Assembly: GCA_030584185.1 (NCBI GenBank)
Contig: CP129495.1
Location: 434,001 to 498,000, forward strand
Length of the DNA stretch: 64,000 nt
Origin: Acidimicrobiia bacterium
Lineage (GTDB): Bacteria > Actinomycetota > Acidimicrobiia > Spongiisociales > UBA11373
Reading direction: 5' to 3'
Part shown: positions 23,289 through 44,159 of the stretch, in pieces
Layout: every line of letters begins with the position of its first letter
Position numbering within the stretch: the first letter of the stretch is position 1
Position numbers and translations under genes: made by a program
Notes under the pieces: generated by a model
Databases searched by the model: none
The model's input: the letters and a program-made list of their open reading frames with translations, nothing else
What the model was told of the DNA's origin: nothing

Positions 23289-23918
23289 GTGTTCAAGCGT
23301 ACCGTCACCGCCCTGGTCGTCCTGGTCGCCATCCTTATGGGAATGGCTGCCCCGGCGATGGCCAATGTGACGAGGCGCGCCGAGGGGCTCACCATCTCCG
23401 GGGAGCCGACAATCGACGAGGCCTCCGAGATCTCGCACCAGTGGTCTCGCATCCACCTCTTCTTCCCGGCGGCCGCAGCCTGCGTGCCACCGGTCTCCGT
23501 GGTGGTGGTCGACAGGGCCGAGGACGCCTGGGCCAGCGGCAAGGTGTCCGGCATCGCCGCCTTCTATCGGCGGTCCGAGCAGACCGTGTTCGTCGAGCAC
23601 GGCAAGGTGCGCGCCGAGCACCTGATCCACGAGTTCGCCCACCACCTCGACCTCTCCTGCGGCTTCAACGAAGGCGGCCTCGGTGCCGAGTTCCTCGGGG
23701 CTCAGGGGTTCGCCGCCGACCAGCAGTGGACCCAGGGATCGACCTGGGGCCGGGTGCCGGCCGAGCACTTCGCCGAGGCCGTGGTCGGATTCATGGGGAT
23801 CGACTCGGTGGACCTGCCGGTGTCCTCGGCCGCCTTCGCCCTGGTTCGCCGCTTCGCCATCTGGGGCGCCGGTGGGAACGAGGCGGCTGCGGCGCCGCTC
23901 TCCGAGCCGCGGAACTGA
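23289..23918 (+). CDS. Secreted zincin-like protein (HEFAHH)
   Basis: 209 residues. The signal peptide (about 1-26) ends AMA-N. HLIHEFAHHLDLSCGFNEGG holds an HExxH motif (about 117-121), and the later AEHFAEAVVGFMG supplies a downstream Glu as third ligand, as in small gluzincin-like proteases (compare the E-x-x-A-E segment of such folds). Two Cys (about 65 and 126) may form a disulfide. No pro-domain is seen. The GTG start is the only one before the signal peptide. It opens the cell-surface cluster and may process the CAP or LPNTG proteins encoded next to it; this is inference. Confidence 0.65.
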   Translation: MFKRTVTALVVLVAILMGMAAPAMANVTRRAEGLTISGEPTIDEASEISHQWSRIHLFFPAAAACVPPVSVVVVDRAEDAWASGKVSGIAAFYRRSEQTVFVEHGKVRAEHLIHEFAHHLDLSCGFNEGGLGAEFLGAQGFAADQQWTQGSTWGRVPAEHFAEAVVGFMGIDSVDLPVSSAAFALVRRFAIWGAGGNEAAAAPLSEPRN

Positions 23919-23955
23919 AGTTCATGACCCGGGCTGGGGTACCCTGCGGCCCCAG

Positions 23956-25737
23956 ATGAGATCCCGTCTCCCAGCCGCCGTCGCCTTTATGCTGCTCATG
24001 GTGACCCCGGTCGCCATGGCCGCTCCCGAGGACGTGACCGCCGAGGAGCAGTGGTTCGTCTACGACCTCAACCGGGCCCGGTGGGATCCGCAGGGGTACG
24101 CCGCCGAGATCGAGGCCGCCTACCCGGGGGCGTACGGCCTGTCAGAGGCGGCCGGCCTGCTCCCTCAGCCGCCGCTCGCGCCCAACACCTCCCTGTACGC
24201 CTCGTCGGGGTTCAAGTCGAACGAGATGGCCTGGTACGACTACTTCGCCCACAAGAGCCCGATCACCGGGAAGTGGCCGAATGGCCTCGCAAGGTCGTAC
24301 GGGTATCCCCTCCCGTCCTACTGGTCCAGCAATGACAACTACATCGAGGTCCTGTGGGCTTCGAATGGTGGTGGCAGTGTGCCGCCGCCGGCCGCCATCT
24401 TCATGGACTCGCCGTACCACACCCCGATCCTGTTCCAGTGGACCCGACACGAGATCGGCGTCGGCCACACCGACCTCTGTTCCACGCGGGGCGGATCGTG
24501 CCGGGCACTTTCCGTGAACGCAGCGTCGCGCACCGAATCCGCCCCGTGGACGCTCTTCGTCACCGGCGTCGCGTACGACGACGCCAACGGGAACGGCAGG
24601 ATGGATCTCGGCGAGGGTCGCAGCGGGGTTCAGGTGAGTGCGGGTGGGTCCTCGACCACCACGAACGCCGGTGGTGGCTACTCGCTGATGCTCCCCCCCG
24701 GGAAGCACACCATCTCCACTTCCGGTGCCGGGTTCGGGGCGTCCACGGCTTTGGTCCTGGTGATCGGGCACAACGTCGGGGTCGATTTCGAGAAGGGCAC
24801 GCCTGTCGGGGAGGTGCGCGCCTATCCGAGCCGGCTCGCAGGTGCCGACCGGTACGCCACGGCGGTCCAGACCTCCCAGTACTCCCACCCGACAGCCAGC
24901 GGAGGAACCGTGTACCTGGCCACCGGCGGCAACTACCCGGACGCCCTCTCTGCCGGTCCCGCCGCCGCCCGTGAGGACGCCCCGATCCTACTCACCGCTC
25001 CCACCGCCCTCCCCGGCAGCACCCGCAGCGAGCTGGCCCGCCTCCAGCCCTCCAAGGTGGTGGCGGTGGGGGGACCGGTGGCCATCGCCGACGAAGTGCT
25101 AGCCGAGGTGAAGGCGCTCCTCCCTGCGGCCACCATGGTGCGTCGCTCCGGGCCCACGAGGTACGGGACCGCCGCCGCCGTCTCCGCAGGAGCCTTCCCC
25201 CAGGGGGCGGATGTGGTGTACGTCGCAACCGGGCTCAACTTTCCCGACGCCCTGGTGGCGTCGCCGAACGCCATCCTGGATGAGGCTCCCCTGCTGCTGG
25301 TGCCGTCCACCGGCATCCCGTCCGACGTCGGAGCCGAGTTGACCCGTCTCGGGCCGAGCCGGATCGTCATCGTCGGCGGGACCGAGGCGGTGTCGGCCCA
25401 GACCGAGACGGCACTCCGGGCCTACGCCCCGACCGTGACCCGCATCCCCGCCTCCAGCCGGTACTCGCTCTCGGCCGAGATGTCCAAGCGGGCGTACCCC
25501 CAGGGGGCGAACACCGTGTACGTGGCCACCGGGGAGAACTACCCGGATGCTCTCGCCGCCGGACCGGCTGCCGGCACCAACCCTGGCCCGCTGCTCCTGG
25601 TCACCCCGTGGGGCGTTCCCGACGCCGTTCGAGATGAGTTCGAGCGGCTCGACCCCACCAACGTGGTGATACTCGGCGGCCCGGCTGCGGTGCCCGACTC
25701 GGTCCTGGCGGCACTGGTCCGGCTGCTCGAGCCCTGA
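23956..25737 (+). CDS. CAP (SCP/PR1) domain protein with SdrD-B-like domain and CWB2 wall-binding repeats
   Basis: 593 residues from ATG 23956. Signal peptide (1-22), CAP domain (about 28-190: WFVYDLNRARWDPQGYAAEI, DYFAHKSPITGKWPNGLARS, NYIEVLW, HEIGVGH), an SdrD-B-like beta module (about 198-265: VTGVAYDDANGNGRMDLGEG, then GGGYSLMLPPG), and three cell-wall-binding type 2 repeats (about 292-590: RLAGADRYATA, VYLATGGNYPDALSAGPAAA, KVVAVGGPVAI and equivalents). CWB2 repeats hold proteins on anionic wall polymers without a covalent bond. It is a paralogue of the gene at 27540. The role of CAP domains in bacteria is mostly unclear. Confidence 0.9.
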   Translation: MRSRLPAAVAFMLLMVTPVAMAAPEDVTAEEQWFVYDLNRARWDPQGYAAEIEAAYPGAYGLSEAAGLLPQPPLAPNTSLYASSGFKSNEMAWYDYFAHKSPITGKWPNGLARSYGYPLPSYWSSNDNYIEVLWASNGGGSVPPPAAIFMDSPYHTPILFQWTRHEIGVGHTDLCSTRGGSCRALSVNAASRTESAPWTLFVTGVAYDDANGNGRMDLGEGRSGVQVSAGGSSTTTNAGGGYSLMLPPGKHTISTSGAGFGASTALVLVIGHNVGVDFEKGTPVGEVRAYPSRLAGADRYATAVQTSQYSHPTASGGTVYLATGGNYPDALSAGPAAAREDAPILLTAPTALPGSTRSELARLQPSKVVAVGGPVAIADEVLAEVKALLPAATMVRRSGPTRYGTAAAVSAGAFPQGADVVYVATGLNFPDALVASPNAILDEAPLLLVPSTGIPSDVGAELTRLGPSRIVIVGGTEAVSAQTETALRAYAPTVTRIPASSRYSLSAEMSKRAYPQGANTVYVATGENYPDALAAGPAAGTNPGPLLLVTPWGVPDAVRDEFERLDPTNVVILGGPAAVPDSVLAALVRLLEP

Positions 25738-25829: not shown

Positions 25830-27311
25830 TCAGATTCCGCGGTAGAGGCGACGCTTCTCGTCGGCGGTCACCAGGAGGCCGGCGCCCGAGAGCAGCAATC
25901 CCAGGCCGGCCAGGGCCACCAGCAGCAGGTTGCCTCCACCGCCGGTGTTGGGCAGGTCGGGCACGGTGGTGGTCGGCCCCGCCACCGTCGAGGTGGTCTG
26001 ACCGACCGTCGTGCTCGGCCCCGCCACGGTGGTGCTCGTCTGAACGACCGTCGTGGTCGTCGGATCCGTGGTGCTCGTCGTCGTGGTCGTCGGATCCGTG
26101 GTGCTGGTGGTCGTGCTCGGACCACCGATCGTGGTGCTCGTAGTAGTCGGCGGCTCCGTAGTCGTAGTCGTCGGCGGCTCCGTAGTCGTAGTCGTCGGCG
26201 GCTCCGTAGTCGTAGTCGTCGGCGGCTCCGTAGTCGTAGTCGTCGGCGGCTCCGTAGTCGTAGTCGTCGGCGGCTCCGTAGTCGTAGTCGTCGGCGGCTC
26301 CGTAGTCGTAGTCGTCGGCGGCTCCGTAGTCGTAGTCGTCGGCGGCTCCGTAGTCGTCGTAGTCGGCGGCTCCGTAGTCGTAGTCGTCGGCGGCTCCGTA
26401 GTCGTAGTCGTCGGCGGCTCCGTAGTCGTAGTCGGCGGCTCCGTAGTCGTCGTAGTCGGCGGCTCCGTAGTCGTAGTCGTCGGCGGCTCCGTAGTCGTAG
26501 TAGTGGCGGTCGGATCCACGCAGATGTCGAGGTGCGAGATCCCGTACGGCGCCCCACCCGGGCCTGCCGGAGTGGTGTAGGGAAGCGTGCCCGGGTACAC
26601 GAGGTAGTGCGTGTCCGGGCCTCCACCGGTCTTGACGTAGACCAGGGCCGATCCCGTGGGGTCGTCCACCGAGGTCACCCCGTCGTACTCACCTGGTTCC
26701 CCGGCCTTTGGATGGAGGTAGACGGTCACGCCACCGGCGGACACCGCTGCGCCCGGCGAGAGGTCCTCGTATCGCGTGTACCCCTCGGGGCACGACGGGT
26801 GCGGCCCATCCGGCACTGTGGTGGTCGTCGAAGGCCCGGCGACGGTGGTCGTCGTGGTCGGGCAGTTCTTGCCGACCTTCAGGTTGCTGTGGTTCCAGGG
26901 CCCGTGGCTGGTGTTGCCGTTCCCCCAGTTGGAGTTGGCCACGACCTTGAAGTCGAGGTCGTTGGTGGCGGCGAGGTAGATCGAACCGCCGAAGGACAAG
27001 TTCGGGTAATCGAATGCGCCTGTCTGGATCTCGACCCATGATCCGCCGTTCACACGGTAGGAAACCGTGATGCTCGAGTTCTCATACTTGACGTTGTTGC
27101 CCGTCCCCCATGACGTCGTGAGCCAGTCGACCTTGTAGAGGCCGCCCTCGTTGGTCTCACACGTGGGAGTGCCGGTGATAGTGGCGTGGTGGGCGAAGGC
27201 GGGGACCGCGACGGCCACCCCGAACGCCATCAAGACCATCACAAGGCCGATCACGGTCAGCCCGGAACCTGCGCGCGCCCTCGGCGAGCTCGCATGTGTA
27301 GAACGAATCAT
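25830..27311 (-). CDS. LPNTG-anchored surface protein with TTTTTEPP stalk
   Basis: 493 residues from ATG 27311 (MIRSTHASS). Signal peptide (about 1-41, ending AFA-HH), a beta-rich domain with two Cys (about 42-150, FDYPNLSFGGSIYLAATND), a Thr-rich link, a second domain (about 170-260, containing PSCPEGYTRYEDLSPGAAVS), then 15 EPP-ended Thr repeats (about 263-382), more Thr/Ser/Pro, and at the C-terminus LPNTG, a hydrophobic helix (NLLLVALAGLGLLLSGAGLL) and a basic tail (DEKRRLYRG). This is a complete sortase signal, so the protein should be covalently fixed to the wall with the stalk lifting the N-terminal domains outward. A sortase gene lies 2 kb away. Confidence 0.88.
   Translation of the reverse strand: MIRSTHASSPRARAGSGLTVIGLVMVLMAFGVAVAVPAFAHHATITGTPTCETNEGGLYKVDWLTTSWGTGNNVKYENSSITVSYRVNGGSWVEIQTGAFDYPNLSFGGSIYLAATNDLDFKVVANSNWGNGNTSHGPWNHSNLKVGKNCPTTTTTVAGPSTTTTVPDGPHPSCPEGYTRYEDLSPGAAVSAGGVTVYLHPKAGEPGEYDGVTSVDDPTGSALVYVKTGGGPDTHYLVYPGTLPYTTPAGPGGAPYGISHLDICVDPTATTTTTEPPTTTTTEPPTTTTTEPPTTTTEPPTTTTTEPPTTTTTEPPTTTTTEPPTTTTTEPPTTTTTEPPTTTTTEPPTTTTTEPPTTTTTEPPTTTTTEPPTTTTTEPPTTTTTEPPTTTSTTIGGPSTTTSTTDPTTTTTSTTDPTTTTVVQTSTTVAGPSTTVGQTTSTVAGPTTTVPDLPNTGGGGNLLLVALAGLGLLLSGAGLLVTADEKRRLYRGI
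26142..26504 (-). repeat. In-frame tandem repeat encoding (TTTTTEPP)n
   Basis: Fifteen units, most 24 bp (TTTTTEPP) with one or two of 21 bp (TTTTEPP). DNA units are nearly identical (GGCGGCTCCGTAGTCGTAGT and so on), so the array is young and likely to change copy number by slippage. Confidence 0.9.
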
Positions 27312-27539
27312 CTTGGACCGCGCCTTTCCTGCATTGCCACATGCACTTCTGTCCTCGGCGTTCCGGCTCCCACCGGCACACCCCCTCATCACCACTCAAC
27401 GTAGCACTTTCCACAACCCACTTCCAGATGAACGCCCAAAGTGATCAGATCGTTCGGCCAGCAGCGAACTGACTAGTCACTCGCCGGGCTTTCGCGATCT
27501 CGATCAATCCCTTCAGGTCCACCCCCGCCACTCCGATGA

Positions 27540-29465
27540 GTGGTTGAAGTGACCACCTTCCGTAACCGCCTCTCGATCTTCGCCGCCGCGGCCCTGGCTT
27601 CTGCTCTGCTGCCGACCGTCGCGGCGGTCGCTGCCACCGATCCAGCAGTCGACGCCCAGCAACTGGTCTACGAGCTCAACCGGGCCCGCTGGAACCCGGG
27701 GGCATTCGCCGCCGAGATGGGATCCTCGATGCCGGCGATACCGGCGGCTCCTCCCGTTGCACCCAATCCCGCCCTCACCTCGTCGGCCATGTTCAAGGCC
27801 AACGAGATCGCCGACAACGGCTACTTCTCCCACCAGAGCGCCGTCACCGGAATCTGGCCCAACCGACTGGTGCGCGACCACGGCTATCCGCTCCCTCCCG
27901 GCTGGCCCGACGACGCCAACTACCTCGAGTCCCTCCACGGCGGCAGCCCCAACCCGCGCAACGTGCTGCTCTCCTTCGCCGACTCGCCTTCCCACCGGGT
28001 TCACGTCTTCGGTGAGGGCGGGTTCCTCGCCCACAACGAGATCGGGGTCGGACGGAGCACCAACCAGAACTACTGGGCGGTCCACCTCACCCCCCGCGCC
28101 GGGTCGCCGCTGTTCGTGACCGGCGTGGTGTTCGCCGACACCAACGGGAACGGCCTGATGGACCTCGGGGAGGCCATGCCCGGGGTCACCATCGCCACCA
28201 CGGCAGGTACGACGACGACCAACGCCGGCGGTGGTTACAGCATCTCCCTCGCCCCGGGCTCCTACGCCATCACGGCGTCGGGTGGCGGGATGGCGGCCTC
28301 GGTCGGCGCCTCCTTCGATCTCGGCTCCTACAACGTCGGGGTCGACTTCATCAAGGGTGCGCCTCGCGGCGTGGTTCGCGCCTACGAACTCTGCCAGGGC
28401 CTGCAACCCACGATCTTGGGGACCGACTGGGATGACGTCCTGGTCGGCACCTCGGGCAACGACGTCATCCACGGGCTCGGGGGTGACGACCAGATAGACG
28501 GCATGGGCGGCAACGACGTCATCTGCGGCGGAGACGGCAACGACGTCGTCGAAGGTGTCGCCGAGAACCCACGCCTCGCCGGCGGTGACCGTTACGACAC
28601 CGCAGCGGTGGTGGCCCGCTACTCGCACCCCGATGTCACCGGAGGCGTCGTCTACCTCGCCACCGGCACCAACTATCCGGACGCCATTGCCGCCGGACCC
28701 GCCGCCGCCCGGCAGAACGCACCGATCCTCCTCGCCTCCCCGACCGGCCTCCCGGGAGACACCCAGCGCGAGCTGACCCGTCTGCGCCCCGCTCAGGTGG
28801 TGGTCCTCGGTGGGTCGACGGCGGTCTCCGACGCCACACTCGACCAGGTCCGCAATCTTCTGCCCGGCGCTCAGGTGACCCGTCGCGCCGGCAGCAACCG
28901 CTACGCGACGGCGGTCGAAGTCTCCAAGGCTGCGTTCCCGTCAGGTGCCGGCACCGTGTTCGTCGCCACCGGGACCGCCTTCCCCGACGCCCTCGCCGCC
29001 GCCCCGGCCGCCATCGCCGCCGCTGCCCCGCTCCTCCTGCTGCCCGCCACCGGGGTCCCGTCGGTGGTCGCCGACGAGCTGCGACGCCTCGCCCCGACCC
29101 GGATCGTGGTGGTGGGTGACGCCAGCGTGGTCAGCGATGTCACCCTGGATCAGCTGGGAGGCCTTGCTCCAACGGTCACCCGCCTTGCGGGCGCCACTCG
29201 GTACGCCACGGCGGCGCAGGTGTCGAGGGCGACCTACCCCGACGGGGCCGACACGGTGTACATCGCCACCGGCGAGAACTTCCCCGACGCCCTGGCCGCC
29301 GGTCCCGCCACCCGGATCGGCGACGGGCCGCTCCTCTTCGTGTCCTCGACCTCGGTGCCAGACGTGATCCGCGACGAGATCGCCCGGCTGGCTCCGACCA
29401 AGATCATCATCCTCGGCGGGCCCGCCGTGGTGAGCGAAGCGGTGGCCGCCCAACTCGGGCGATGA
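27540..29465 (+). CDS. CAP domain protein with SdrD-B-like, RTX calcium-binding and CWB2 domains
   Basis: 641 residues. Signal peptide (about 1-32), CAP domain (about 38-185: LVYELNRARWNPGAFAAEM, YFSHQSAVTGIWPNRLVRD, NYLESLHGG, HNEIGVGR), SdrD-B-like module (about 195-275: VTGVVFADTNGNGLMDLGEA), then RTX nonapeptides (about 300-340: GTSGNDVIHGLGGDDQIDG, GGNDVICGGDGNDVV) and three CWB2 repeats (about 343-640). It is a paralogue of the gene at 23956 with an RTX block inserted between SdrD-B and CWB2. The calcium-binding block may stiffen the protein outside the cell. The start is weakly marked (GTG 27540 or 27549). Its stop overlaps the sortase ATG, so the two are coupled. Confidence 0.88.
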   Translation: MVEVTTFRNRLSIFAAAALASALLPTVAAVAATDPAVDAQQLVYELNRARWNPGAFAAEMGSSMPAIPAAPPVAPNPALTSSAMFKANEIADNGYFSHQSAVTGIWPNRLVRDHGYPLPPGWPDDANYLESLHGGSPNPRNVLLSFADSPSHRVHVFGEGGFLAHNEIGVGRSTNQNYWAVHLTPRAGSPLFVTGVVFADTNGNGLMDLGEAMPGVTIATTAGTTTTNAGGGYSISLAPGSYAITASGGGMAASVGASFDLGSYNVGVDFIKGAPRGVVRAYELCQGLQPTILGTDWDDVLVGTSGNDVIHGLGGDDQIDGMGGNDVICGGDGNDVVEGVAENPRLAGGDRYDTAAVVARYSHPDVTGGVVYLATGTNYPDAIAAGPAAARQNAPILLASPTGLPGDTQRELTRLRPAQVVVLGGSTAVSDATLDQVRNLLPGAQVTRRAGSNRYATAVEVSKAAFPSGAGTVFVATGTAFPDALAAAPAAIAAAAPLLLLPATGVPSVVADELRRLAPTRIVVVGDASVVSDVTLDQLGGLAPTVTRLAGATRYATAAQVSRATYPDGADTVYIATGENFPDALAAGPATRIGDGPLLFVSSTSVPDVIRDEIARLAPTKIIILGGPAVVSEAVAAQLGR

Positions 29466-30469
29466 CCCGGCCAGGAAGAGATGTCGTAACACAGCAACCG
29501 TCCACCGGTACCCTGCCACCGGTGGACTTCACCCAGCGTCACGACACCGGTTCGGCACTTCTGACCTTCGAGAAGGCGATAGACATCGGCGTGTTCGACG
29601 GGAGGATCGGCCCGGGAGTCGTCGAGGCACCGACACCGCTGCCGGCGGAAGATGAACTTCCCCCCGGCGCCCTTGTGCCGGACCCGGAGAACACGGGACG
29701 CAGGTGGAATCCGTGGGCGCTCACACTCGGCGTGGCCATGGTGCTCGCCGGGCTGTCCTTCATCGGATTCGCTGCCTTCCAGAAGTTCGGCACCGACGCC
29801 ATCGCCGCCTCCCATCAGGCCGACCTCGAGGTGGAGTTCGAGGCCAGGAAGGAGGGACCGGTCCCGGTCACCACCGAGACGCCACCGGACACGAGTTCCG
29901 CCGATCCTGCAGAGTTCGACGACCCCGAGGACGTCCCGATCCTCATCGGCACCGCCGGGGACCCGCTGCTCGCCGAGTCCGACAACATCGTGGTCGAGGC
30001 ACCGCCCGCCTCCGGGATGGCGCTGGGAAGGATCGTGATCCCCCAGGCCGGGGTCGACTGGGTCCTGGTGGAGGGCGTCAGCGCCGCCGACCTCCGCAAA
30101 GGACCCGGGCACATGCCGTGGACTGCCGTACCCGGGCAACCCGGCAACGCGGTCATCAGCGGCCACCGGACCACCTACGGATCGCCGTTCAACCGGCTCG
30201 ACCTGCTGGTGCCCGGCGATCGGTTCACCGTGGAGACCCTCATCGGCGACCACACCTACGAGGTGGTGTCCACGCTGATAGTGGCACCCGACGACGTCTG
30301 GGTGACCGAGCAGTGGACCGGGGGCTGGCTCACGCTCACGACATGCCACCCGAAGGGTTCGTCACGTCAGCGTCTGATCGTGTTCTCGAAGCTGGTGGAC
30401 GGGCCCAACGCCGCCGCCATCAGGGTCGAGTACCCGTCGCTGTACACGCCTCCGCAGCCGCCCGCCTGA
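29462..30469 (+). CDS. Sortase, class E-like
   Basis: 335 residues. A cytoplasmic N-terminus of about 80 residues is unusually long. One membrane helix (about 85-104, LTLGVAMVLAGLSFIGFAAF) and an acidic linker precede the sortase barrel (about 185-320). Catalytic residues are visible: His in NAVISGHRTTYGSPF, Cys in LTLTTCHPKGSSRQR, and Arg in the same SRQR. The TTCHP-x4-RQR arrangement is that of class E sortases. It would join LPxTG-type proteins to peptidoglycan; the obvious client is the LPNTG protein at 25830. Its ATG overlaps the stop of the CAP-RTX-CWB2 gene. Confidence 0.9.
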   Translation: MTRPGRDVVTQQPSTGTLPPVDFTQRHDTGSALLTFEKAIDIGVFDGRIGPGVVEAPTPLPAEDELPPGALVPDPENTGRRWNPWALTLGVAMVLAGLSFIGFAAFQKFGTDAIAASHQADLEVEFEARKEGPVPVTTETPPDTSSADPAEFDDPEDVPILIGTAGDPLLAESDNIVVEAPPASGMALGRIVIPQAGVDWVLVEGVSAADLRKGPGHMPWTAVPGQPGNAVISGHRTTYGSPFNRLDLLVPGDRFTVETLIGDHTYEVVSTLIVAPDDVWVTEQWTGGWLTLTTCHPKGSSRQRLIVFSKLVDGPNAAAIRVEYPSLYTPPQPPA

Positions 30470-36764: not shown

Positions 36765-36840
36765 GGGCCCGTAGCTCAACGGTCAGAGCGCCGGACTCAT
36801 AATCCGACAGATGCAGGTTCGAGTCCTGCCGGGCCCACCA
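36765..36840 (+). tRNA. tRNA with CAT anticodon (elongator Met or Ile2)
   Basis: GGGCCCG (5') pairs with CGGGCCC (3'), the D-arm is GCTC...GAGC, the anticodon loop CTCATAA gives CAT, the T-arm is GCAGG/CCTGC, and CCA is encoded at 36838-36840. A perfect acceptor stem argues against initiator tRNA. Met or lysidine-modified Ile2 cannot be told apart here. An IS481 element begins within 2 nt of its CCA. Confidence 0.93.
36826..36838 (+). repeat. 13-bp direct repeat at the tRNA 3' end, left copy
   Basis: CTGCCGGGCCCAC from the T-arm and acceptor stem of the tRNA is repeated at 37851-37863, beyond the IS481 element. It may be the IS target duplication or an attachment-site core. Confidence 0.7.
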
Positions 36841-36841
36841 G

Positions 36842-37850
36842 TCTAGAACTGACGGACATTTCTTACATCTCGGCTCTCCGGATCCAACCGAGGAGAGTGA
36901 TGACCGAGAGACAACAGCAGCGGCTGGTGAACCATCGGCTGGCGGTGATCCGCCACGCCGAGGAAGTGACCGGCAACGTCGCCCAGACCTGCCGCTACTT
37001 CGGGATCAGCCGCCAGACCTTCTACGTCTGGCTGCGCCGCTACGAAGAGAAAGGGCTCGAAGGTCTGCGGGATCGGTCCCGACGTCCCCACCACAGCCCC
37101 AACGCCACCTCAGCCGAGGTGGTGGGAAAGATCATCTACCTGCGCCAGAACTACCACTTCGGGCCGGGGAAGATCGCCATGTATCTCCGCCGCTACCACG
37201 AGATCACCATCAGCCCCTCGGGGATATGGCGGATCCTGTGCCGGCTCGAGCTGAACCGACTCCCCAGCTCGCAACGCCACAAGACCTACCAGAAGCGATG
37301 GAAACGCTACGAGAAACCCCAACCAGGCCACCGCGTCCAGGTCGACGTCAAGTTCATCACCCCCGTCGGGGCAGCCGGGAAACGGTTCTACCAGTTCACC
37401 GCCATCGACGACTGCACCCGGCTCCGGGTCCTGCGGGCATATCCCCGCTGCAACCAGAAGACCGCCATCCAGTTCCTCGACTACCTCCTGGCCAAGCTGC
37501 CGTTCCGAGTCGAGGTCATCCAAACCGACAACGGAGCCGAATTCGGATCCCAGTTCCACTACCACGTCCTCGACCGCGGCATCAGACACGTATACATCAA
37601 ACCGGCCACCCCCCGACTCAACGGCAAAGCGGAACGATCTCACCGCATCGACGAAGAAGAGTTCTACCGGATGCTCGACGGCGTCGTCATCGACGACACC
37701 GACCTGTTCAACGACAAGCTGCAAGAGTGGGAGGACTTCTACAACTTCAACCGACCACACGGCTGCCTCGACGGCCAGACCCCCTACGAACGGCTAAGGC
37801 AGAAGACCACCGAGAGCCAACCGGTGTAAGCAGACACCGTCAATTGCACA
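36842..37850 (+). mobile_element. IS481-family insertion sequence at the tRNA 3' end
   Basis: Imperfect inverted ends TCTAGAACTGACGG (36842-36855) and, reading inward, TGTGCAATTGACGG (37850-37837) flank a single transposase gene. A 13-bp repeat of the tRNA end stands on both sides, in the size range of IS481 target duplications, though 3 nt separate the left copy from the left inverted end. Confidence 0.78.
36900..37829 (+). CDS. IS481-family transposase
   Basis: 309 residues from ATG 36900, with GAGGAGAG just upstream. An HTH (TCRYFGISRQTFYVWLRRYE) is followed by an integrase core with RVQVDVKFI (first Asp), VIQTDNGAEF (second Asp) and RLNGKAERSHRIDEEEF (Glu). The single-ORF layout and HTH-rve order are those of IS481. 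All catalytic residues are kept, so it may be active. Confidence 0.92.
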   Translation: MTERQQQRLVNHRLAVIRHAEEVTGNVAQTCRYFGISRQTFYVWLRRYEEKGLEGLRDRSRRPHHSPNATSAEVVGKIIYLRQNYHFGPGKIAMYLRRYHEITISPSGIWRILCRLELNRLPSSQRHKTYQKRWKRYEKPQPGHRVQVDVKFITPVGAAGKRFYQFTAIDDCTRLRVLRAYPRCNQKTAIQFLDYLLAKLPFRVEVIQTDNGAEFGSQFHYHVLDRGIRHVYIKPATPRLNGKAERSHRIDEEEFYRMLDGVVIDDTDLFNDKLQEWEDFYNFNRPHGCLDGQTPYERLRQKTTESQPV

Positions 37851-38165: not shown

Positions 38166-38750
38166 TCATTGCCCGCGTGGCGCCATTGAGCCGGGGCCTT
38201 TGACGAGAAAGACGCCGAGCCCGCAGACCAGCAGGGTGAGGGCGGCGACCGCAGCAGCAGTTGACCCGCTGTCGTGCACTAGGAAGGCCCACGAGGATGG
38301 CGGAATCCCTGGGGACTGGGTGCCGATAAGCCACATCACCGCAGGCGTTAGAACCTGGATGAGCATTGCCCACGTGCGCGGGACCAATCCGGAGAGTGCG
38401 TATCCTTGCCCGACCAGAAAGCAAGAATTTCGGCAGGCAACTGAAGGATTCACCCCCGGTGGACTCAAAGCGATCAGTGTCGCGATGGCCACCACCGATA
38501 GCGCGACGTGCCCGACCTTACGTTCGGCCATGGACCGGACGCTGATTCGCTCGAGATCGTCGCCAAGGTAGTAGCAGGCATTCAAGAGAACACCGGCAGG
38601 GATCACGGGAAGCAACGGCCATAGATCTGCGACGACTTCGACACGGCCAGGCACCCGAACGGCAGTGCTGAACGCAGCCGACAGAAGCAGCGCAACAGCT
38701 ACCGAGATGCCCACTGCCGCTGAATCCAGTCGTCTAAGTAGAAGTCGCAC
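38166..38750 (-). CDS. Multi-helix membrane protein of the secreted-protein/ABC operon
   Basis: 194 residues with about five membrane helices (AAVGISVAVALLLSAAFST, LWPLLPVIPAGVLLNACYYL, HVALSVVAIATLIALSPPG, TWAMLIQVLTPAVMWLIGT, STAAAVAALTLLVCGLGVFL). The GTG start at 38750 overlaps the stop of the preceding gene by 17 nt, so the two are coupled. No family recognised; it probably forms part of the membrane complex with the 388-residue protein and the ATPase. Confidence 0.68.
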   Translation of the reverse strand: MRLLLRRLDSAAVGISVAVALLLSAAFSTAVRVPGRVEVVADLWPLLPVIPAGVLLNACYYLGDDLERISVRSMAERKVGHVALSVVAIATLIALSPPGVNPSVACRNSCFLVGQGYALSGLVPRTWAMLIQVLTPAVMWLIGTQSPGIPPSSWAFLVHDSGSTAAAVAALTLLVCGLGVFLVKGPGSMAPRGQ

Positions 38751-39900
38751 AGTCGATCAAGGTCCGGCTTGCCGCGGCTAGGAGTGGCGGGGGTTCTTCT
38801 CGTATGCCGTGGGCGTAGTCGTAAATCTCGTCCACCCATCTCACAATCGACCCCACGATCTCCAGTTGAGCGGGATCATCCGGATCGCCACTTAGGCAGT
38901 CGTGTATGTAGGAGTTGATCACCGCGCCAGTCGCTACCAACCGAGGGTCCTCGGCCGTATCGCGCACCTGCGGAATGAATCCGACCAGCGGACCTACGTC
39001 GGAGAGGTCTTGCGTCAAACGCACCGGCGCTGGGTGGCCACTCGCCTTGATGGCTGCGACCAGTGGATCGAGCGCCGCGATGAGATCGGGTCGGTATCGC
39101 TCATACTCAACGGTGAGGCAGACCTCCGGCCTGTCGCCTTCACACGCGACATCGGCTCGAACCACCTCGAGTGTGTCCTCGGTCCCCGCCAGCAAGATCG
39201 CAGCAGCGATCACCACACCGATGCTCGCGAAGACGCCGCGGGACAACATACCTGGCATTCGAGGTGACAGCCCAAGGGCTGTGATCGTTGCCGCGGCGTA
39301 GAACGAGAACTGGACGGCACTCACCGGCTGTCGAGGTGAGAGGGAGATGAGGGACGCGCCGGCCCCTCCGACGCGAACAAACGCGTAGTCAACCGAGTAC
39401 CCGAAGAGAATCATCGCGAAGACGACGAGGGGCATCATCGCAACCGAAATCCACTTCTCAGTCTTCCAGCCAACGACCAACCCACTAGCACATGCAAAAC
39501 CAACCAAGGCCAACGCTGGAGGCGTTGTTTGGAGGGCCGTTCCATACGGATGACCTGGCGTTCCATGCAGCTTGACAGCAATCACGACTGAGGTGAGCCC
39601 GACGAGGTACGCGAGGCTGGTCCACGTCATCAGACTGGCCCAAATGGCTGTGACGGCACGTCTTGCTTCGTTCCGGGCGTCCACAGCTTCCTTAGTCGCA
39701 GAGAACCGTACGCCCTCCCACGCTCCGAGCCCGGCGACGAGCGGTGCAAGGAGCACCGTGACGAAGTGGAAGTTGTATATCGCCCATTGCATCTCATGCA
39801 GCGAGTCGAGGGGCCGTAGGAAGTAGTTGAAGATCACTAGCGATACGATCGCCGCAAACGCAGTGCGGCCGATCGACCGTCGGAGTCCCAGAGTGATCAC
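38734..39900 (-). CDS. ABC-2-like membrane protein with C-terminal extracytoplasmic domain
   Basis: 388 residues. About seven helices between residues 10 and 215 (AAIVSLVIFNYFLRPL, FVTVLLAPLVAGLGAW, SLAYLVGLTSVVIAVKL, ALALVGFACASGLVVGW, SVAMMPLVVFAMILFGYSV, then GVFASIGVVIAAAILLAG), followed by a soluble tail of about 170 residues with VACEGDRPEVCLTVEYERY. A Cys-x(n)-VC motif followed by a helical domain is also seen in actinobacterial ABC-2-type permeases. The GTG at 39900 is 7 nt after the ATPase stop. It is the likely permease for that ATPase. Confidence 0.72.
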   Translation of the reverse strand: MITLGLRRSIGRTAFAAIVSLVIFNYFLRPLDSLHEMQWAIYNFHFVTVLLAPLVAGLGAWEGVRFSATKEAVDARNEARRAVTAIWASLMTWTSLAYLVGLTSVVIAVKLHGTPGHPYGTALQTTPPALALVGFACASGLVVGWKTEKWISVAMMPLVVFAMILFGYSVDYAFVRVGGAGASLISLSPRQPVSAVQFSFYAAATITALGLSPRMPGMLSRGVFASIGVVIAAAILLAGTEDTLEVVRADVACEGDRPEVCLTVEYERYRPDLIAALDPLVAAIKASGHPAPVRLTQDLSDVGPLVGFIPQVRDTAEDPRLVATGAVINSYIHDCLSGDPDDPAQLEIVGSIVRWVDEIYDYAHGIREEPPPLLAAASRTLIDCATST

Positions 39901-39907
39901 TTGAGCC

Positions 39908-40741
39908 TCACTCGGCCTGCAAGTCTGGCCGTGGGGTGCACGAGTGGCTCTCCGTGAGGAACCGCAACGCGGTCTCGATCGGCCGTTCGTCGCCGATCGC
40001 TTGGTTCGGGGGTGCCAGCTCCTCCAACCCTCTCGCGCTGCCGTCGAATAGGACGAGCCCCCGGTCGAGGACGACGACACGATCACCCAGGAGCTCGACC
40101 TCCTCAACCAGGTGCGTTGCTAGCACCACCAACCGACTACGCGACCAGGCACGGAGCAGGTGCCTCAGTCGGGCACGATGAGAAGAATCGACTGAAGATG
40201 ATGGCTCGTCAAGGAGCAGCAACCGGGGTTCATGCACGGTGGCTTGTGCGAGATAGACCGTCTGCCTTTCGCCGACCGACATTTGGCCGATCCTCCTATC
40301 TGCCAGGTGAGTTGCACCGAACGCGCCAAGCGCCGCTCTTGCAGCCTTCCGCCTGTGTCCGCGCGCGACCTTCGCGAGCCAAGCGGCATACTCGACGGCG
40401 TCGATGGCCGTGAAGTGGCCCGGAAACGAGGCGTCTTGGGGGAGGTACCCAATCCAGGAACGAGCGCGCCGCAGTTGCCTTCGATCCGACAGGGAGTTGC
40501 CTGCAATGAAGACAGACCCCGAGGACGGGGGATACAAACTGGCGAGCGTACGAATCAGAGATGATTTCCCGGCCCCATTCGGGCCAGCCAGCACCAGGAG
40601 CCCGGTGTCCGCCTCCAGGGTTATGTCGTCTAAGACCAGTCGATCGCCGCGCCTGAGCGAGAGATTCTGGACACGAAGGGTGGGTGGAGGCCCGTCCTCC
40701 ACCCACCCTTCCCCATTGGGCCGTTGTGGTGCTCCGTTCAC
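39908..40741 (-). CDS. ABC transporter ATPase of the secreted-protein operon
   Basis: About 277 residues. Walker A GPNGAGKSS, Q-loop in YLPQDASFPGHF, a variant signature MSVGERQTVYLA (SVGER rather than SGGQ), Walker B LLLLDEPSSSVD and H-loop ATHLVEEVE. The FPGHFTAIDAVEYAAWL stretch resembles ABC-2-type exporters. The start is uncertain: TTG 40747, GTG 40741 or GTG 40702 are in frame, and only the last would leave the hairpin at 40676-40710 partly outside the gene. It acts with the membrane proteins encoded next. Confidence 0.85.
   Translation of the reverse strand: MNGAPQRPNGEGWVEDGPPPTLRVQNLSLRRGDRLVLDDITLEADTGLLVLAGPNGAGKSSLIRTLASLYPPSSGSVFIAGNSLSDRRQLRRARSWIGYLPQDASFPGHFTAIDAVEYAAWLAKVARGHRRKAARAALGAFGATHLADRRIGQMSVGERQTVYLAQATVHEPRLLLLDEPSSSVDSSHRARLRHLLRAWSRSRLVVLATHLVEEVELLGDRVVVLDRGLVLFDGSARGLEELAPPNQAIGDERPIETALRFLTESHSCTPRPDLQAE
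40676..40710 (-). promoter_or_regulatory. Perfect 15-bp hairpin at the secreted-protein/ATPase junction
   Basis: AAGGGTGGGTGGAGG (40676-40690) and CCTCCACCCACCCTT (40696-40710) pair without mismatch around a 5-nt loop. The hairpin covers the region where ATPase translation may begin, 65 nt after the stop of the secreted-protein gene. It could lower transporter expression relative to the secreted product by attenuation, mRNA protection or masking of the start. No U-tract. Confidence 0.55.
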
Positions 40742-40774
40742 CCTCAAGCGGGGCGTCTCCAGACTAAGGGACGG

Positions 40775-41176
40775 CTAGGGGATGATGACCCAACTTGAGC
40801 AACTATCCGGCACCGGCCAACCCATCTCGGCACACGCGATCGTCTTGATCGTATAGTACGACCCTGGAGCGGTGTGCGAGAAGTACCTTGTTGTATTCTC
40901 GATCTCAGGAGTGGTTCGTTGATAGAGCAAGCTGTACGGATACCACGACGAATAGAATCTCGTCTTCGCGTAGACCGTGTTTCCGTCGTTGATCGGGTCC
41001 TGCAAATAGAAGTTATTCCAGCTGGTTGATCCGTGGCCGGCGTCGCCCCACGCCTTGACAACTCGGTGTCCGTTGTACCAGGAGTCAATCGGCCCCCAGG
41101 CTGTCGCAGCCGCGGGACCGGCGCCGAGCAACAGGGCCAACGCAGCCCCCAGGATGACTCGGATCGTCTTTGTCAT
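40775..41176 (-). CDS. Small secreted protein with a C-terminal Cys pair, cargo candidate
   Basis: 133 residues from ATG 41176, supported by GGAAGGAGAAGG about 9 nt upstream. Signal peptide (about 1-25, ending AAATA), then a mature part of about 107 residues rich in aromatic residues (WGPIDSWYNGHRVVKAWGD, STSWNNFYLQDP) and a C-terminus CAEMGWPVPDSCSSW with two Cys that may bond. No family recognised. Small size, Sec-type signal, strong ribosome site and first place before an ABC ATPase and two membrane proteins resemble layouts of secreted peptide/immunity systems such as lactococcin-972-type loci, but sequence likeness to such peptides is not evident. Confidence 0.7.
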   Translation of the reverse strand: MTKTIRVILGAALALLLGAGPAAATAWGPIDSWYNGHRVVKAWGDAGHGSTSWNNFYLQDPINDGNTVYAKTRFYSSWYPYSLLYQRTTPEIENTTRYFSHTAPGSYYTIKTIACAEMGWPVPDSCSSWVIIP

Positions 41177-41419
41177 GAGTGCCTTCTCCTTCCCCCGGAA
41201 CCAGTGCGTTGACACCGCGTACGTTTTCCTGTTCCAGGCAATCATTTCATCCCAGTTACTGTCTGATAGGGCCCAAAGACCCTATTTCGAGATCAAGGAG
41301 ATTCTCGCCAGAGGTGCGAGCTCGCACCTCGCTGACCTGACCATCGAACGATGGGCCTGATGCACGGATAGTTGACAATGAGTCTGGCTTGCTTCGGTGG
41401 GCCGGGAAGGATGTTGCCT

Positions 41420-41713
41420 ATGCCAAAGCCGTATCCCCGAGAGTTCCGTGACGATGTCGTGCGGGTGGCCCGCAGCCGAGACGAGGGGGTGACACTGGAT
41501 CAGATCGCGGCGGAGTTCGGGATTCATCCGATGACGTTGACCAAGTGGCTGCGTCAGGCCCGGATCGATGCCGGTGAGCAGCCGGGACGCTCCACGACCG
41601 AGTCGGGGGATCTGCGGGCTGCTCGGCGTCGGATCCGCCTGTTGGAGCAGGAGAACGAGGTGCTGCGCCGGGCTGCGGCGTATCTCGGCCGGGCCAACCT
41701 CCCAAAAGGGTGA
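41420..41713 (+). CDS. IS3-family transposase OrfA
   Basis: 97 residues. YPREFRDDVVRVARSRDEG and AAEFGIHPMTLTKWLRQA form the helix-turn-helix; RRRIRLLEQENEVLRRA is a leucine-zipper-like helix. ATG 41420 lies 9 nt after GGAAGG. The slippery heptamer C CCA AAA (41701-41707) stands 3 nt before the stop codon, where a -1 shift leads into OrfB. Confidence 0.92.
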   Translation: MPKPYPREFRDDVVRVARSRDEGVTLDQIAAEFGIHPMTLTKWLRQARIDAGEQPGRSTTESGDLRAARRRIRLLEQENEVLRRAAAYLGRANLPKG

Positions 41714-42585
41714 TGTATCCGGTGATTCGCGAGCTCGCTGCCGACGGGATCCCCGTTGTGGTGGCGTGCCGGGTACTCGATGTCGCTCGCCAACCCTACT
41801 ACCGGTGGCTGCATCGCCCGATCGGCCCGGTCGAGGCCCGCCGTGGGGTGTTGACCGAGGCGATCCGGGAGGCACACACCGATGATCCCGAGTTCGGGTA
41901 CCGGTTCTTGGCCGACGAGGTCCGTGCCGGCGGCTATGACGTGTGTGACCGCACCGTGTGGCGGATCTGCGCCGCGAATGGCTGGTGGGCCAGTTTCTCC
42001 GTTGCCAACCGGCGCCGCAAGACCACCATCGGGCGTCTCCCCGCCCACGATGACCTGGTTCGCCGGGAGTTCACCGCCGAGGCCCCCAACGAGGTGTGGG
42101 TCGCCGACATCACCGAACACCCCACCGGCGAAGGCAATCTCTATCTGTGTGCCGTCAAAGACCTGTGGTCGAACCGGATCGTCGGCTACGCCCTCGACGA
42201 ACGCATGAAAGCCCGCCTCGCCGTCGCCGCCATCGAGATCGCCGTCGCCCGCCGCGGTGGCGTGGCCGGATGCATCGTCCACACCGACCGCGGGTCGCAG
42301 TTCCGTGCCCGGGCACTGAAACGCTGCCTGGACCGTCACGGCCTGGTCGGGTCGATGGGCCAGGTCGGCTCAGCCGCCGACAACGCCGCCGCCGAATCGT
42401 TCTTCTCGCTCCTACAGAACAACGTTCTGAACCGGCGACACTGGCGCACCCGAGACGAGCTCCGAATCGCCATCATCACCTGGATCGAACGCACCTACCA
42501 CCGCCGACGCCGCCAACAAGCCCTCGGCCGATTGACCCCCATCGAATACGAGATGATCATGACCCCAGCCGCCAAGGCGGCCTAA
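41710..42585 (+). CDS. IS3-family transposase OrfB (DDE catalytic domain)
   Basis: 291 residues. CRVLDVARQPYYRWLHRP (HTH_21), then VWVADITEHPTGEGNLYLC (Asp), CIVHTDRGSQFRA (Asp) and DNAAAESFFSLLQNNVL (Glu); it ends RQQALGRLTPIEYE. The catalytic triad is intact. It is made as the OrfAB fusion by -1 frameshifting; the GTG at 41710, overlapping the orfA stop, may also start free OrfB. Confidence 0.92.
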   Translation: MMYPVIRELAADGIPVVVACRVLDVARQPYYRWLHRPIGPVEARRGVLTEAIREAHTDDPEFGYRFLADEVRAGGYDVCDRTVWRICAANGWWASFSVANRRRKTTIGRLPAHDDLVRREFTAEAPNEVWVADITEHPTGEGNLYLCAVKDLWSNRIVGYALDERMKARLAVAAIEIAVARRGGVAGCIVHTDRGSQFRARALKRCLDRHGLVGSMGQVGSAADNAAAESFFSLLQNNVLNRRHWRTRDELRIAIITWIERTYHRRRRQQALGRLTPIEYEMIMTPAAKAA

Positions 42586-42624: not shown

Positions 42625-42708
42625 CGCCAGGCGGCTGAGGTCGCTGCCAGCGGCCACCAAGCCGACGATCAGGCGTTCATCGACGCCGTCAGCCTCGACG
42701 AGAGGTGA
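42625..42708 (+). pseudogene. C-terminal remnant of a MazE-like antitoxin, cut by IS3 copy 2
   Basis: Directly after the IS3 end a frame reads RQAAEVAASGHQADDQAFID and ends AVSLDER at TGA 42706-42708. That stop overlaps the MazF GTG (GTGA), the usual antitoxin-toxin arrangement. The acidic, Ala-rich helix fits the toxin-binding tail of a MazE-type antitoxin. Its N-terminal DNA-binding part is missing and was not found left of the IS. Confidence 0.55.
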
Positions 42709-43037
42709 GACGCTCCGAGATCTGGACCGCCTCAGCAGGTAGCGGATACGCGGGCAAGCCGCGCCCGGTGGTCATCGTTCAAGACGACCGCTTTGATGCG
42801 ACACACTCGGTGACCGTATGCGCCTTCACCACCGATCCGACCGAGGCGCCACTGATTCGGCTCCCCGTGGCCCCCGACGATCAGAACGGCCTCCGGATGC
42901 CCTGCAGCCTCATGGTGGACAAGATCACCACCGTGCCTCGCACCAAGCTGAGAGAACCGGTCGGGCGTCTCGCCGATCAGGACATGGTCAGGCTGGGTCG
43001 TGCCATCGTGGTCTTCTTCGGGCTGGCCGGCGCCTAA
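42705..43037 (+). CDS. mazF: PemK/MazF-family endoribonuclease toxin
   Basis: 110 residues, the full family length. RRSEIWTASAGSGYAGKPRP and VVIVQDDRFDAT form the first strands with the conserved Arg and Pro; CSLMVDKITTVPRTKL and REPVGRLADQDM are the central family motifs, with Ser and Asp in place. MazF proteins cut single-stranded mRNA at short motifs and stop growth unless held by their antitoxin. Here the antitoxin gene is truncated by an IS3 element, so the toxin may be unexpressed, weak or controlled in trans. The GTG start overlaps the antitoxin stop. Confidence 0.9.
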   Translation: MRRSEIWTASAGSGYAGKPRPVVIVQDDRFDATHSVTVCAFTTDPTEAPLIRLPVAPDDQNGLRMPCSLMVDKITTVPRTKLREPVGRLADQDMVRLGRAIVVFFGLAGA

Positions 43038-43316: not shown

Positions 43317-44159
43317 CTACTGAGGCTCCGTCGATCGGCCGATTCCCGATCCGAGGCCCTTGTGCCACACGAATGCCTCCACGCGAGCGGTGACCTCTCG
43401 CAGGATGGCGGCGGCGGCATCGTGACGAAGGCATCCGGCCTCCACCAGGGCCGCCAGCTCATCGGCAGCCGTTGCCGTGAGGGCGGCGACGACCTCACCT
43501 GGATCGAAACCGTTCTGGCGTGCCACCTCGGCGATCGACTTGCCGGAGTGGAGGTTGCGGACCAGCTCGAGCACATCGATACCGATCGCGTGAGCGGCAC
43601 CCTTGAGCATGCCGCGCAGGGTCGGCTGCCGGTACAGGTCGGGCCGCTCGCACTCGTCACCTCCCAGCGGCCCACCCGGCTTCTCCACGAAGGCGGTGAA
43701 CCTCGCCGTGACATGAGCCTTCAGCCGCTCACCATGGGCGGGGCGAATGCACCCCTCGCCGACCAGGTAGTCGATCCTGCGGTGCAGCGGTGCCGCCAGG
43801 GCGGCGACGACCACCATCGGATCCACACCGTTGGCGCGCGCCACCCAGGCGATCGATTCCCCCTCAGCAAGGAGCCGGACCAACTCGGTGGTCGGGATCC
43901 CGATCACCTCGGCCGCCGTGTTCAGGTATGACCTGAGGAACGGGAACCGATACACGTCGGGGATGGCGCAGTCCGGCCGATGCCTGGCATCGGACTCGGC
44001 CCCGGCATCATCGGCGAGCGTCGTCGTGGTCGGCTCGGAGTCCACGATCGTGGTTCGTGTCGGCTCCCCATCCGTCTGCTGAGCCAACACCGGGGTGACA
44101 CCGGACAGCGCCAGTGCCGCCACGATCCCCACAGTCGTCAGTCGATATCGCAGCCCCAT
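43317..44159 (-). CDS. Secreted helical protein with two internal repeats
   Basis: 280 residues from ATG 44159; AAGGAG about 6 nt upstream fixes the start. Signal peptide (about 1-26, ending VLA-QQ), Thr-rich linker, then two matching helical units: AAEVIGIPTTELVRLLAEGE followed by SIAWVARANGVDPMVVVAAL, and AAHAIGIDVLELVRNLHSGK followed by SIAEVARQNGFDPGEVVAAL. Each is preceded by a Cys-x-x-P-D-x-Y-R motif. The SIAxVAxxNGxDPxxV pattern also occurs in actinobacterial secreted proteins without known role. It is divergent from the two-component genes and may be their target; inference only. Confidence 0.78.
   Translation of the reverse strand: MGLRYRLTTVGIVAALALSGVTPVLAQQTDGEPTRTTIVDSEPTTTTLADDAGAESDARHRPDCAIPDVYRFPFLRSYLNTAAEVIGIPTTELVRLLAEGESIAWVARANGVDPMVVVAALAAPLHRRIDYLVGEGCIRPAHGERLKAHVTARFTAFVEKPGGPLGGDECERPDLYRQPTLRGMLKGAAHAIGIDVLELVRNLHSGKSIAEVARQNGFDPGEVVAALTATAADELAALVEAGCLRHDAAAAILREVTARVEAFVWHKGLGSGIGRSTEPQ

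What the first reader, a model, noticed from the sequence alone, without database searches (positions are those of the whole stretch)
38166..41176. Candidate undescribed secretion or defence system: small secreted protein, ABC ATPase and two membrane proteins
Gene order on the minus strand is: 133-residue secreted protein with an aromatic-rich body and a C-terminal Cys pair, ATPase with an odd SVGER signature, 388-residue membrane protein with an external Cys-bearing tail, and a 194-residue membrane protein. The last three are overlapped or nearly so. The set lies in a tRNA-linked mosaic between IS elements. The plan resembles lactococcin-972-type loci (secreted bacteriocin plus ATPase plus membrane immunity protein), but no sequence likeness is evident, so it may be a new peptide-toxin/immunity or envelope-stress system.
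Basis: partly seen in the sequence, partly recalled or inferred. Interest (0 to 1): 0.62.

Follow-up and report, generated by a model that had tools for sequence, protein, structure and literature searches.

The report
Secreted protein with ABC immunity cassette
Four linked bacterial genes (a small secreted protein, an ABC-transporter ATPase and two membrane proteins) form a mobile cassette shared by Acidimicrobiia and Streptomyces plasmids; it is probably an uncharacterised antibacterial protein together with the transporter that protects its maker, though no activity has been shown.

Summary
On the minus strand lie a 133-aa Sec-secreted protein, an ABC ATPase, a 388-aa permease with a four-Cys acidic tail and a 194-aa membrane protein, AT-rich and between two IS elements. 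It is a real, conserved cassette: the same order recurs in two other Acidimicrobiia and on two Streptomyces plasmids, and in more distant form in further Acidimicrobiia and Streptomyces. The permease belongs, by full-length profile homology, to the ABC family carrying Pfam DUF7224. In Streptomyces, members of that family are headed by at least three sequence-unrelated small secreted proteins; the permease tree splits by head type. In 131 unselected Streptomyces genomes, 28 of 29 type-B head genes lie in such an ABC locus, whereas about a third of type-B ABC sets have no head or a broken one. One lone plasmid head is truncated. This asymmetry fits toxin plus immunity best, so I read it as a Sec-secreted antibacterial protein with ABC self-protection. 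It works like lactococcin 972 loci but is not a member: no head, immunity-protein or profile match. No toxicity is shown, and heads are as conserved as the transporter, so a substrate or ligand role stays open. New variant of a known kind.

The parts
40775..41176 (-). Secreted 'head' protein, 133 aa, Sec signal about residues 1-25, predicted all-beta mature domain of about 108 aa
   Evidence: homologues at the same place in L019/L012, L018/L013, L041, L042
40799..40834 (-). C-terminal Cys pair motif ACAEMGWPVPDSCS (C115 and C126); ACAxMGWPVPDSCS invariant in the three closest loci, CxQLGFPVxDxCS on the plasmids
39908..40747 (-). ABC ATPase, 279 aa, complete motifs, signature SVGER
   Evidence: (PF00005, E 4e-27)
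38734..39900 (-). Permease, 388 aa, 6-7 transmembrane helices; full-length profile homologue of Streptomyces DUF7224 ABC permeases
   Evidence: (hhalign E 5.3e-26 over 386 columns)
38737..39180 (-). Acidic permease tail (residues 241-388) with C253, C261, C335, C384; equivalent to DUF7224, probably extracellular
   Evidence: (sub-threshold PF23866, E 0.055)
38166..38750 (-). Second membrane protein, 194 aa, overlaps the permease gene by 17 bp; conserved RN...W-A motifs
   Evidence: hhalign E 8e-14 with the Streptomyces type-B set
36765..36840 (+). tRNA-Met flanking the island (context)
36930..37829 (+). IS481-like transposase flanking the cassette (context)
   Evidence: rve, LZ_Tnp_IS481
41372..42585 (+). 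Two-ORF insertion element flanking the cassette on the promoter side (context)
   Evidence: rve, HTH_21

Best explanation
A mobile antibacterial-protein cassette. The head protein is exported by Sec, folds as a small all-beta domain closed by a C-terminal disulfide, and acts on the envelope of related cells that lack the cassette. The ATPase, the Cys-bearing permease and the second membrane protein form one DUF7224-type ABC machine that removes the head protein, or its complex with its target, from the producer's membrane and so gives immunity. Shown by sequence: the four-gene linkage, the Sec signal, the beta fold (predicted), the ABC family, its pairing with unrelated head families, and loss of heads while the ABC set stays. 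Inferred: the disulfide, the killing activity, the target and the immunity role.
For: Same four genes in the same order in Acidimicrobiia and on two Streptomyces plasmids, each plasmid found independently by the permease and by the head. One permease family serves at least three unrelated secreted head families; mature-domain profiles show no likeness, and the permease tree separates by head type (type A needs 2 changes on the tree against 8.5 for shuffled labels). Heads depend on the ABC set: 28 of 29 type-B heads in 131 Streptomyces genomes lie in an ABC locus. ABC sets persist without heads: of 20 genomic type-B-clade sets, 6 have no trace of a head and 1 has a head that lost its N-terminus (Fisher p 0.005 for 7/20 against 1/29, post hoc); on plasmids one set has no head and another has only a possible head-end remnant. 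The lone plasmid head is truncated by a stop. Mobile setting: plasmids, IS elements, low G+C, patchy distribution. Precedents: lactococcin 972 with orf2-orf3 as putative ABC immunity (PMC4055356); one ABC immunity transporter shared by different enterocins, with one component tracking the enterocin (PMC10598978).
Against: No toxin family, motif or known fold in the head; fold search gave only weak ties (best Z 7.3, MspA porin). Heads of types A and B are about as conserved as the permease or more so (window against L019: head 53%, permease 40%), not the hypervariability of an arms race. One intact chromosomal head has no ABC genes (L157). Some loci have two to four heads for one ABC set. Headless ABC sets could have another substrate.
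Confidence: 0.5

Rival explanations
1. The ABC set handles the head as a substrate for release, folding or surface assembly: Sec brings the protein across and the DUF7224 machine extracts it from the membrane or passes it to the wall, for a structural or matrix role rather than a toxic one.
For: Strict linkage, head first in the operon, heads as conserved as the transporter, several heads served by one ABC set, Cys-bearing permease tail where a secreted partner could bind.
Against: Heads carry ordinary Sec signals, so no exporter is needed for translocation; ABC sets persist without heads in about a third of type-B-clade loci; very patchy, mobile distribution is odd for a structural role.
Confidence: 0.22
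2. The head is an extracellular signal or sensor ligand for the ABC complex, as in peptide-sensing or cell-wall antibiotic detoxification modules, and the set answers envelope damage.
For: Ectodomain with conserved Cys, one ABC family with several different small secreted partners, tree congruence of permease with head type.
Against: No sensor kinase or dedicated regulator in the conserved cassette; next genes differ between loci.
Confidence: 0.13
3. ABC importer with a substrate-binding protein.
For: ATPase, two membrane proteins and one secreted protein in an operon.
Against: No lipobox in the head; head families are small, unrelated to each other and match no binding-protein family.
Confidence: 0.05
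4. Anti-phage defence system.
For: Mobile setting near IS elements, tRNA and a PemK-like toxin gene.
Against: PADLOC hits are generic ATPase matches only; no phage record has the permease; a constitutively exported protein is not typical of known defence systems (own knowledge).
Confidence: 0.03

Closest known systems
Lactococcin 972 family bacteriocin loci (lcn972-orf2-orf3; streptococcin scbABC)
   Same: Sec-type small secreted protein, followed by genes for a membrane protein and an ABC ATPase regarded as immunity (PMC4055356, PMC11796350); often mobile; a beta-rich protein without lanthionines (own knowledge for the Lcn972 fold).
   Different: Head does not match Lactococcin_972 (PF09683/TIGR01653) nor align with it profile to profile; no ~650-aa TIGR01654-type protein; real lactococcin 972-type loci in Streptomyces have no DUF7224-type ABC genes within the 1.5 kb examined.
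DUF7224 (PF23866) ABC permeases of Streptomyces
   Same: Full-length homology of the permease and of the second membrane protein, same gene order, same kind of small secreted gene at the head.
   Different: The window protein scores below Pfam's cut-off for DUF7224 and its head is of a different family (type A) from most Streptomyces ones; the family has no described function (no held paper mentions DUF7224).
Mr10EFGH / As-48EFGH enterocin ABC immunity transporters
   Same: One transporter family associated with different bacteriocins, one component tracking the associated bacteriocin (PMC10598978).
   Different: Different proteins and hosts; enterocins are leaderless or circular and share a saposin-like fold; here heads are Sec-exported and the modelled one is all-beta.
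LanFEG lantibiotic immunity transporters
   Same: One ATPase plus two membrane proteins.
   Different: No lanthionine genes seen nearby; Q-loop glutamine kept (GYLPQ) where LanF proteins are reported to have Glu (own knowledge); a 388-aa permease with a Cys tail.

Membership tests
Lactococcin 972 locus | Head matches PF09683/TIGR01653 | tested here: not met
   (0 families at E<=1); hhalign of mature heads against four Streptomyces members E 0.19
Lactococcin 972 locus | Large ~650-aa membrane protein (TIGR01654 type) | tested here: not met
   membrane proteins of 388 and 194 aa, no NCBIfam match
Lactococcin 972 locus | Sec-exported small protein | tested here: met
   (signal segment 7-25, AAA-T cleavage region); by hydropathy, no dedicated predictor
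Lactococcin 972 locus | Same beta-sandwich fold | tested here: inconclusive
   all-beta model, pLDDT 75; no direct comparison with the lactococcin 972 structure was possible
Lactococcin 972 locus | Lipid II binding and septum inhibition | not testable with these tools
   needs experiment
DUF7224 ABC transporter family | Permease homologous over its length including the tail | tested here: met
   hhalign E 5.3e-26 over 386 columns with type-B permeases, one of which has DUF7224 at 4.6e-47
DUF7224 ABC transporter family | Pfam gathering score for PF23866 | tested here: not met
   13.9 bits against 27; the other type-A-clade permeases tested are also below it or unmatched
DUF7224 ABC transporter family | ATPase and small second membrane protein alongside | tested here: met
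LanFEG immunity transporter | Glu in place of the Q-loop Gln | tested here: not met
   GYLPQ in the window and most relatives
LanFEG immunity transporter | Lanthionine synthetase genes in the locus | tested here: not met
   no such ORF in the cassette or its flanks (annotation and translations read, no dedicated search)
ABC importer with binding protein | Lipoprotein binding protein | tested here: not met
   no Cys at the signal cleavage region
Toxin-immunity pair (generic) | Head toxic without the ABC genes, ABC genes protect | not tested
   only the indirect genomic asymmetry was tested

The most novel reading that the evidence does not exclude
A so far unrecognised superfamily of polymorphic Sec-secreted antibacterial proteins of actinomycetes: several unrelated small secreted proteins, each with its own branch of one DUF7224 ABC immunity machine, carried on linear plasmids and islands.
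Probability: 0.42. Interest if true: 0.76.

Novelty: new variant of a known kind. Interest (0 to 1): 0.6.

Why it matters
If true, it gives a function to DUF7224 and its ABC family and adds several families of ribosomally made, Sec-exported antibacterial proteins in Streptomyces, whose protein bacteriocins are little known compared with their small-molecule antibiotics. The cassettes are small, genetically simple (four genes) and found on plasmids, so toxicity and immunity can be tested directly in laboratory strains. The pairing of unrelated heads with one transporter family would also help show how an ABC immunity machine recognises its protein.

Tried and rejected
Lactococcin 972 membership: rejected by family scans, profile alignment and neighbourhood. 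PADLOC defence families: generic ATPase hits only. Weak A1 hits in other Acidimicrobiia (L022-L039): taken as chance; L025/L026 are antisense to a penicillin-binding-protein-like gene. PF23866 phylum search: only a spurious hit, L040. Search of viral contigs with the head profile found none, and P0003 has no match in phages. Homology of head types A, B and C: the first hhalign signal (E 6e-6) lay over the signal peptide and vanished on mature domains. AlphaFold of the permease was too poor to use (pLDDT 45). Fold search of the head: MspA porin, CBM56 and Ig-like domains tied at Z 6-7, not taken as kinship; no lactococcin 972 structure among the rows shown. Head swapping between ABC branches: not seen, types follow the tree, although L081's place is on a long branch. 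Eight headless Streptomyces loci form a separate branch and were not counted as orphans. PDB sequence search: nothing significant. Empty-site comparison in relatives: not informative, neighbours too diverged.

Full report
What is there. The four ORFs of the finding are real. From the promoter side on the minus strand: a 133-aa secreted protein (41176-40775), an ABC ATPase (40747-39908), a 388-aa permease (39900-38734) and a 194-aa membrane protein (38750-38166). The gap between head and ATPase is 27 bp, between ATPase and permease 7 bp, and the two membrane genes overlap by 17 bp. Start codons of the last three (TTG, GTG, GTG) are the fitting choice, not proven. The block has lower G+C than its surroundings (57.5-63.7% against 68%) and lies between an IS481-like element beside tRNA-Met and another two-ORF insertion element.

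Conservation. In 198 related genomes the permease was found only in the window's genome and two others; both have all four genes in the same order (named contigs JALVQZ010000279.1 and JAGNEX010000015.1, Acidimicrobiia). A profile found a fourth, cut by the contig end before the head, and two distant sets with the same order. Among 72,556 plasmids the permease matched only Streptomyces californicus NZ_CP070262.1 and S. longhuiensis NZ_CP085174.1. The head, searched separately, matched only the same two, directly upstream. Both carry the complete four-gene operon. The head has an invariant C-terminal motif in the three closest loci, ACAxMGWPVPDSCS.

The wider family. The 8-row permease profile matched 39 of 247 Streptomyces genomes. 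Forty loci were fetched. Most have ATPase, permease and second membrane protein in that order, and many have a small secreted protein in front. These head proteins fall into types. Type A is that of the window (L075, L081, plasmids L041 and L042, Acidimicrobiia). Type B has 13 loci here, motif ESxRW...C...C...YYF. Type C has six loci plus one plasmid, motif CRGYWY...GHxYC...ECTFKIN. Type D is a single case. Mature domains of A, B and C show no profile similarity. Type-B permeases carry DUF7224, in the best case at 4.6e-47; the window's does so only sub-threshold, but the two permease groups align over their whole length (E 5.3e-26) and so do the second membrane proteins (E 8e-14). None of the heads scanned matches a Pfam or NCBIfam family above its cut-off.

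Tree. In a tree of 52 permeases the type-A rows group together (with L014, whose head end is off the contig), type B and type C each form their own branch with some headless sets inside, and eight headless sets with long ATPases form a separate branch. Long branches (L081, L018, L082) make some placements unsure.

Linkage and its asymmetry. A type-B head profile found 29 genes in 131 Streptomyces genomes not chosen for the ABC set; 28 lie in an ABC locus, one (L157) is alone. Several loci have two heads in tandem, and one has four heads round one ABC set, some on the other strand. Of 20 genomic type-B-clade ABC sets, 13 have a head, one (L114) has a head that lost its N-terminus, six show no trace by tblastn. 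L113 lacks a detectable ATPase and may itself be decaying. Fisher's test for 7/20 against 1/29 gives p 0.005; it is post hoc and the loci are not independent. On plasmids eight of ten records with a type-B-like permease have a head. One, NBC_01166, has none; in NBC_01224 the upstream ORF is a methyltransferase fragment ending in VKSLTVTY, like the end of type-B heads, which I read as a possible deletion scar. The only lone plasmid head (L124) stops early.

Structure. The head is predicted all-beta (seven strands, pLDDT 75, three-row alignment). Searches against solved structures gave only tied, weak matches. The permease model is not usable.

Mechanism. Shown: Sec signal, linkage, family membership of the ABC set, unrelated heads on one ABC family, and head loss with ABC retention. 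Inferred: the head acts on the envelope of competitors, and the ABC set with its Cys-bearing tail recognises and expels it. Heads with no ABC are rare and the plasmid one is broken, whereas ABC sets without a head are common; that is the pattern expected of toxin and immunity genes. Against it, heads are not hypervariable, and there is no toxin signature. A conserved target such as a wall precursor would reconcile this, by analogy with lactococcin 972, which binds lipid II (PMC4055356), but this is not tested.

Comparison. Lactococcin 972 loci share the plan but no homologous head or immunity protein. Real lactococcin 972-type loci found in the same Streptomyces set have no DUF7224-type ABC genes within 1.5 kb. 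In those systems too the role of the membrane and transporter genes has been called experimentally unverified (PMC11796350). The closest functional precedent for different bacteriocins sharing one ABC immunity family is the enterocin MR10/AS-48 transporter (PMC10598978). No paper in the held library mentions DUF7224; most subscription papers are missing from it, so prior description cannot be excluded.

Verdict. A real, mobile, conserved cassette of uncharacterised families; most likely a Sec-secreted antibacterial protein plus ABC immunity (0.5), a new variant of a known kind.

Noticed in passing
window 25830-27395 (-) and 29462-30469 (+): A secreted protein with a long PPTTTTTE repeat and a C-terminal LPNTG-hydrophobic-RR anchor, a few kb from a gene that looks like a class E sortase (by sequence reading, not scanned).
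   Followed up: no
window 23683-25737 and 27540-29465 (+): Two proteins with three C-terminal repeats each that look like cell-wall-binding repeat 2 (GG...YPDALAAGPAA) behind a CAP-like domain; neighbours and apparently paralogous (by sequence reading).
   Followed up: no
window 42705-43037 (+): PemK/MazF-like toxin gene (PF02452, E 1.7e-19) next to the insertion element, with no antitoxin ORF obvious in the list read.
   Followed up: partly
window 43317-44159 (-): Secreted 280-aa protein with two internal repeats of the kind PDVYRxPxLRxxLxxAAxxIGIxxxELVRxLxxGxSIAxVAxxxGVDP.
   Followed up: no
L168 2108-2497: On a Streptomyces plasmid the ORF before a headless ABC set is a methyltransferase N-terminus ending in VKSLTVTY, the end of type-B head proteins: a possible recombination scar that removed the head.
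   Followed up: partly
L158 (G744:C1:6107000-6118500): Four type-B head genes, on both strands, around a single ABC set whose gene order is permease, second membrane protein, ATPase.
   Followed up: partly
L092, L104, L105, L109: A related headless ABC branch in Streptomyces with very long ATPase ORFs; L092 has a sigma-factor-like ORF directly upstream. Possibly a house-keeping or differently regulated cousin.
   Followed up: no
L166 982-1668: A ScbR-type autoregulator receptor gene sits just before a type-B head cassette on a 62-kb Streptomyces plasmid, suggesting gamma-butyrolactone control there.
   Followed up: no
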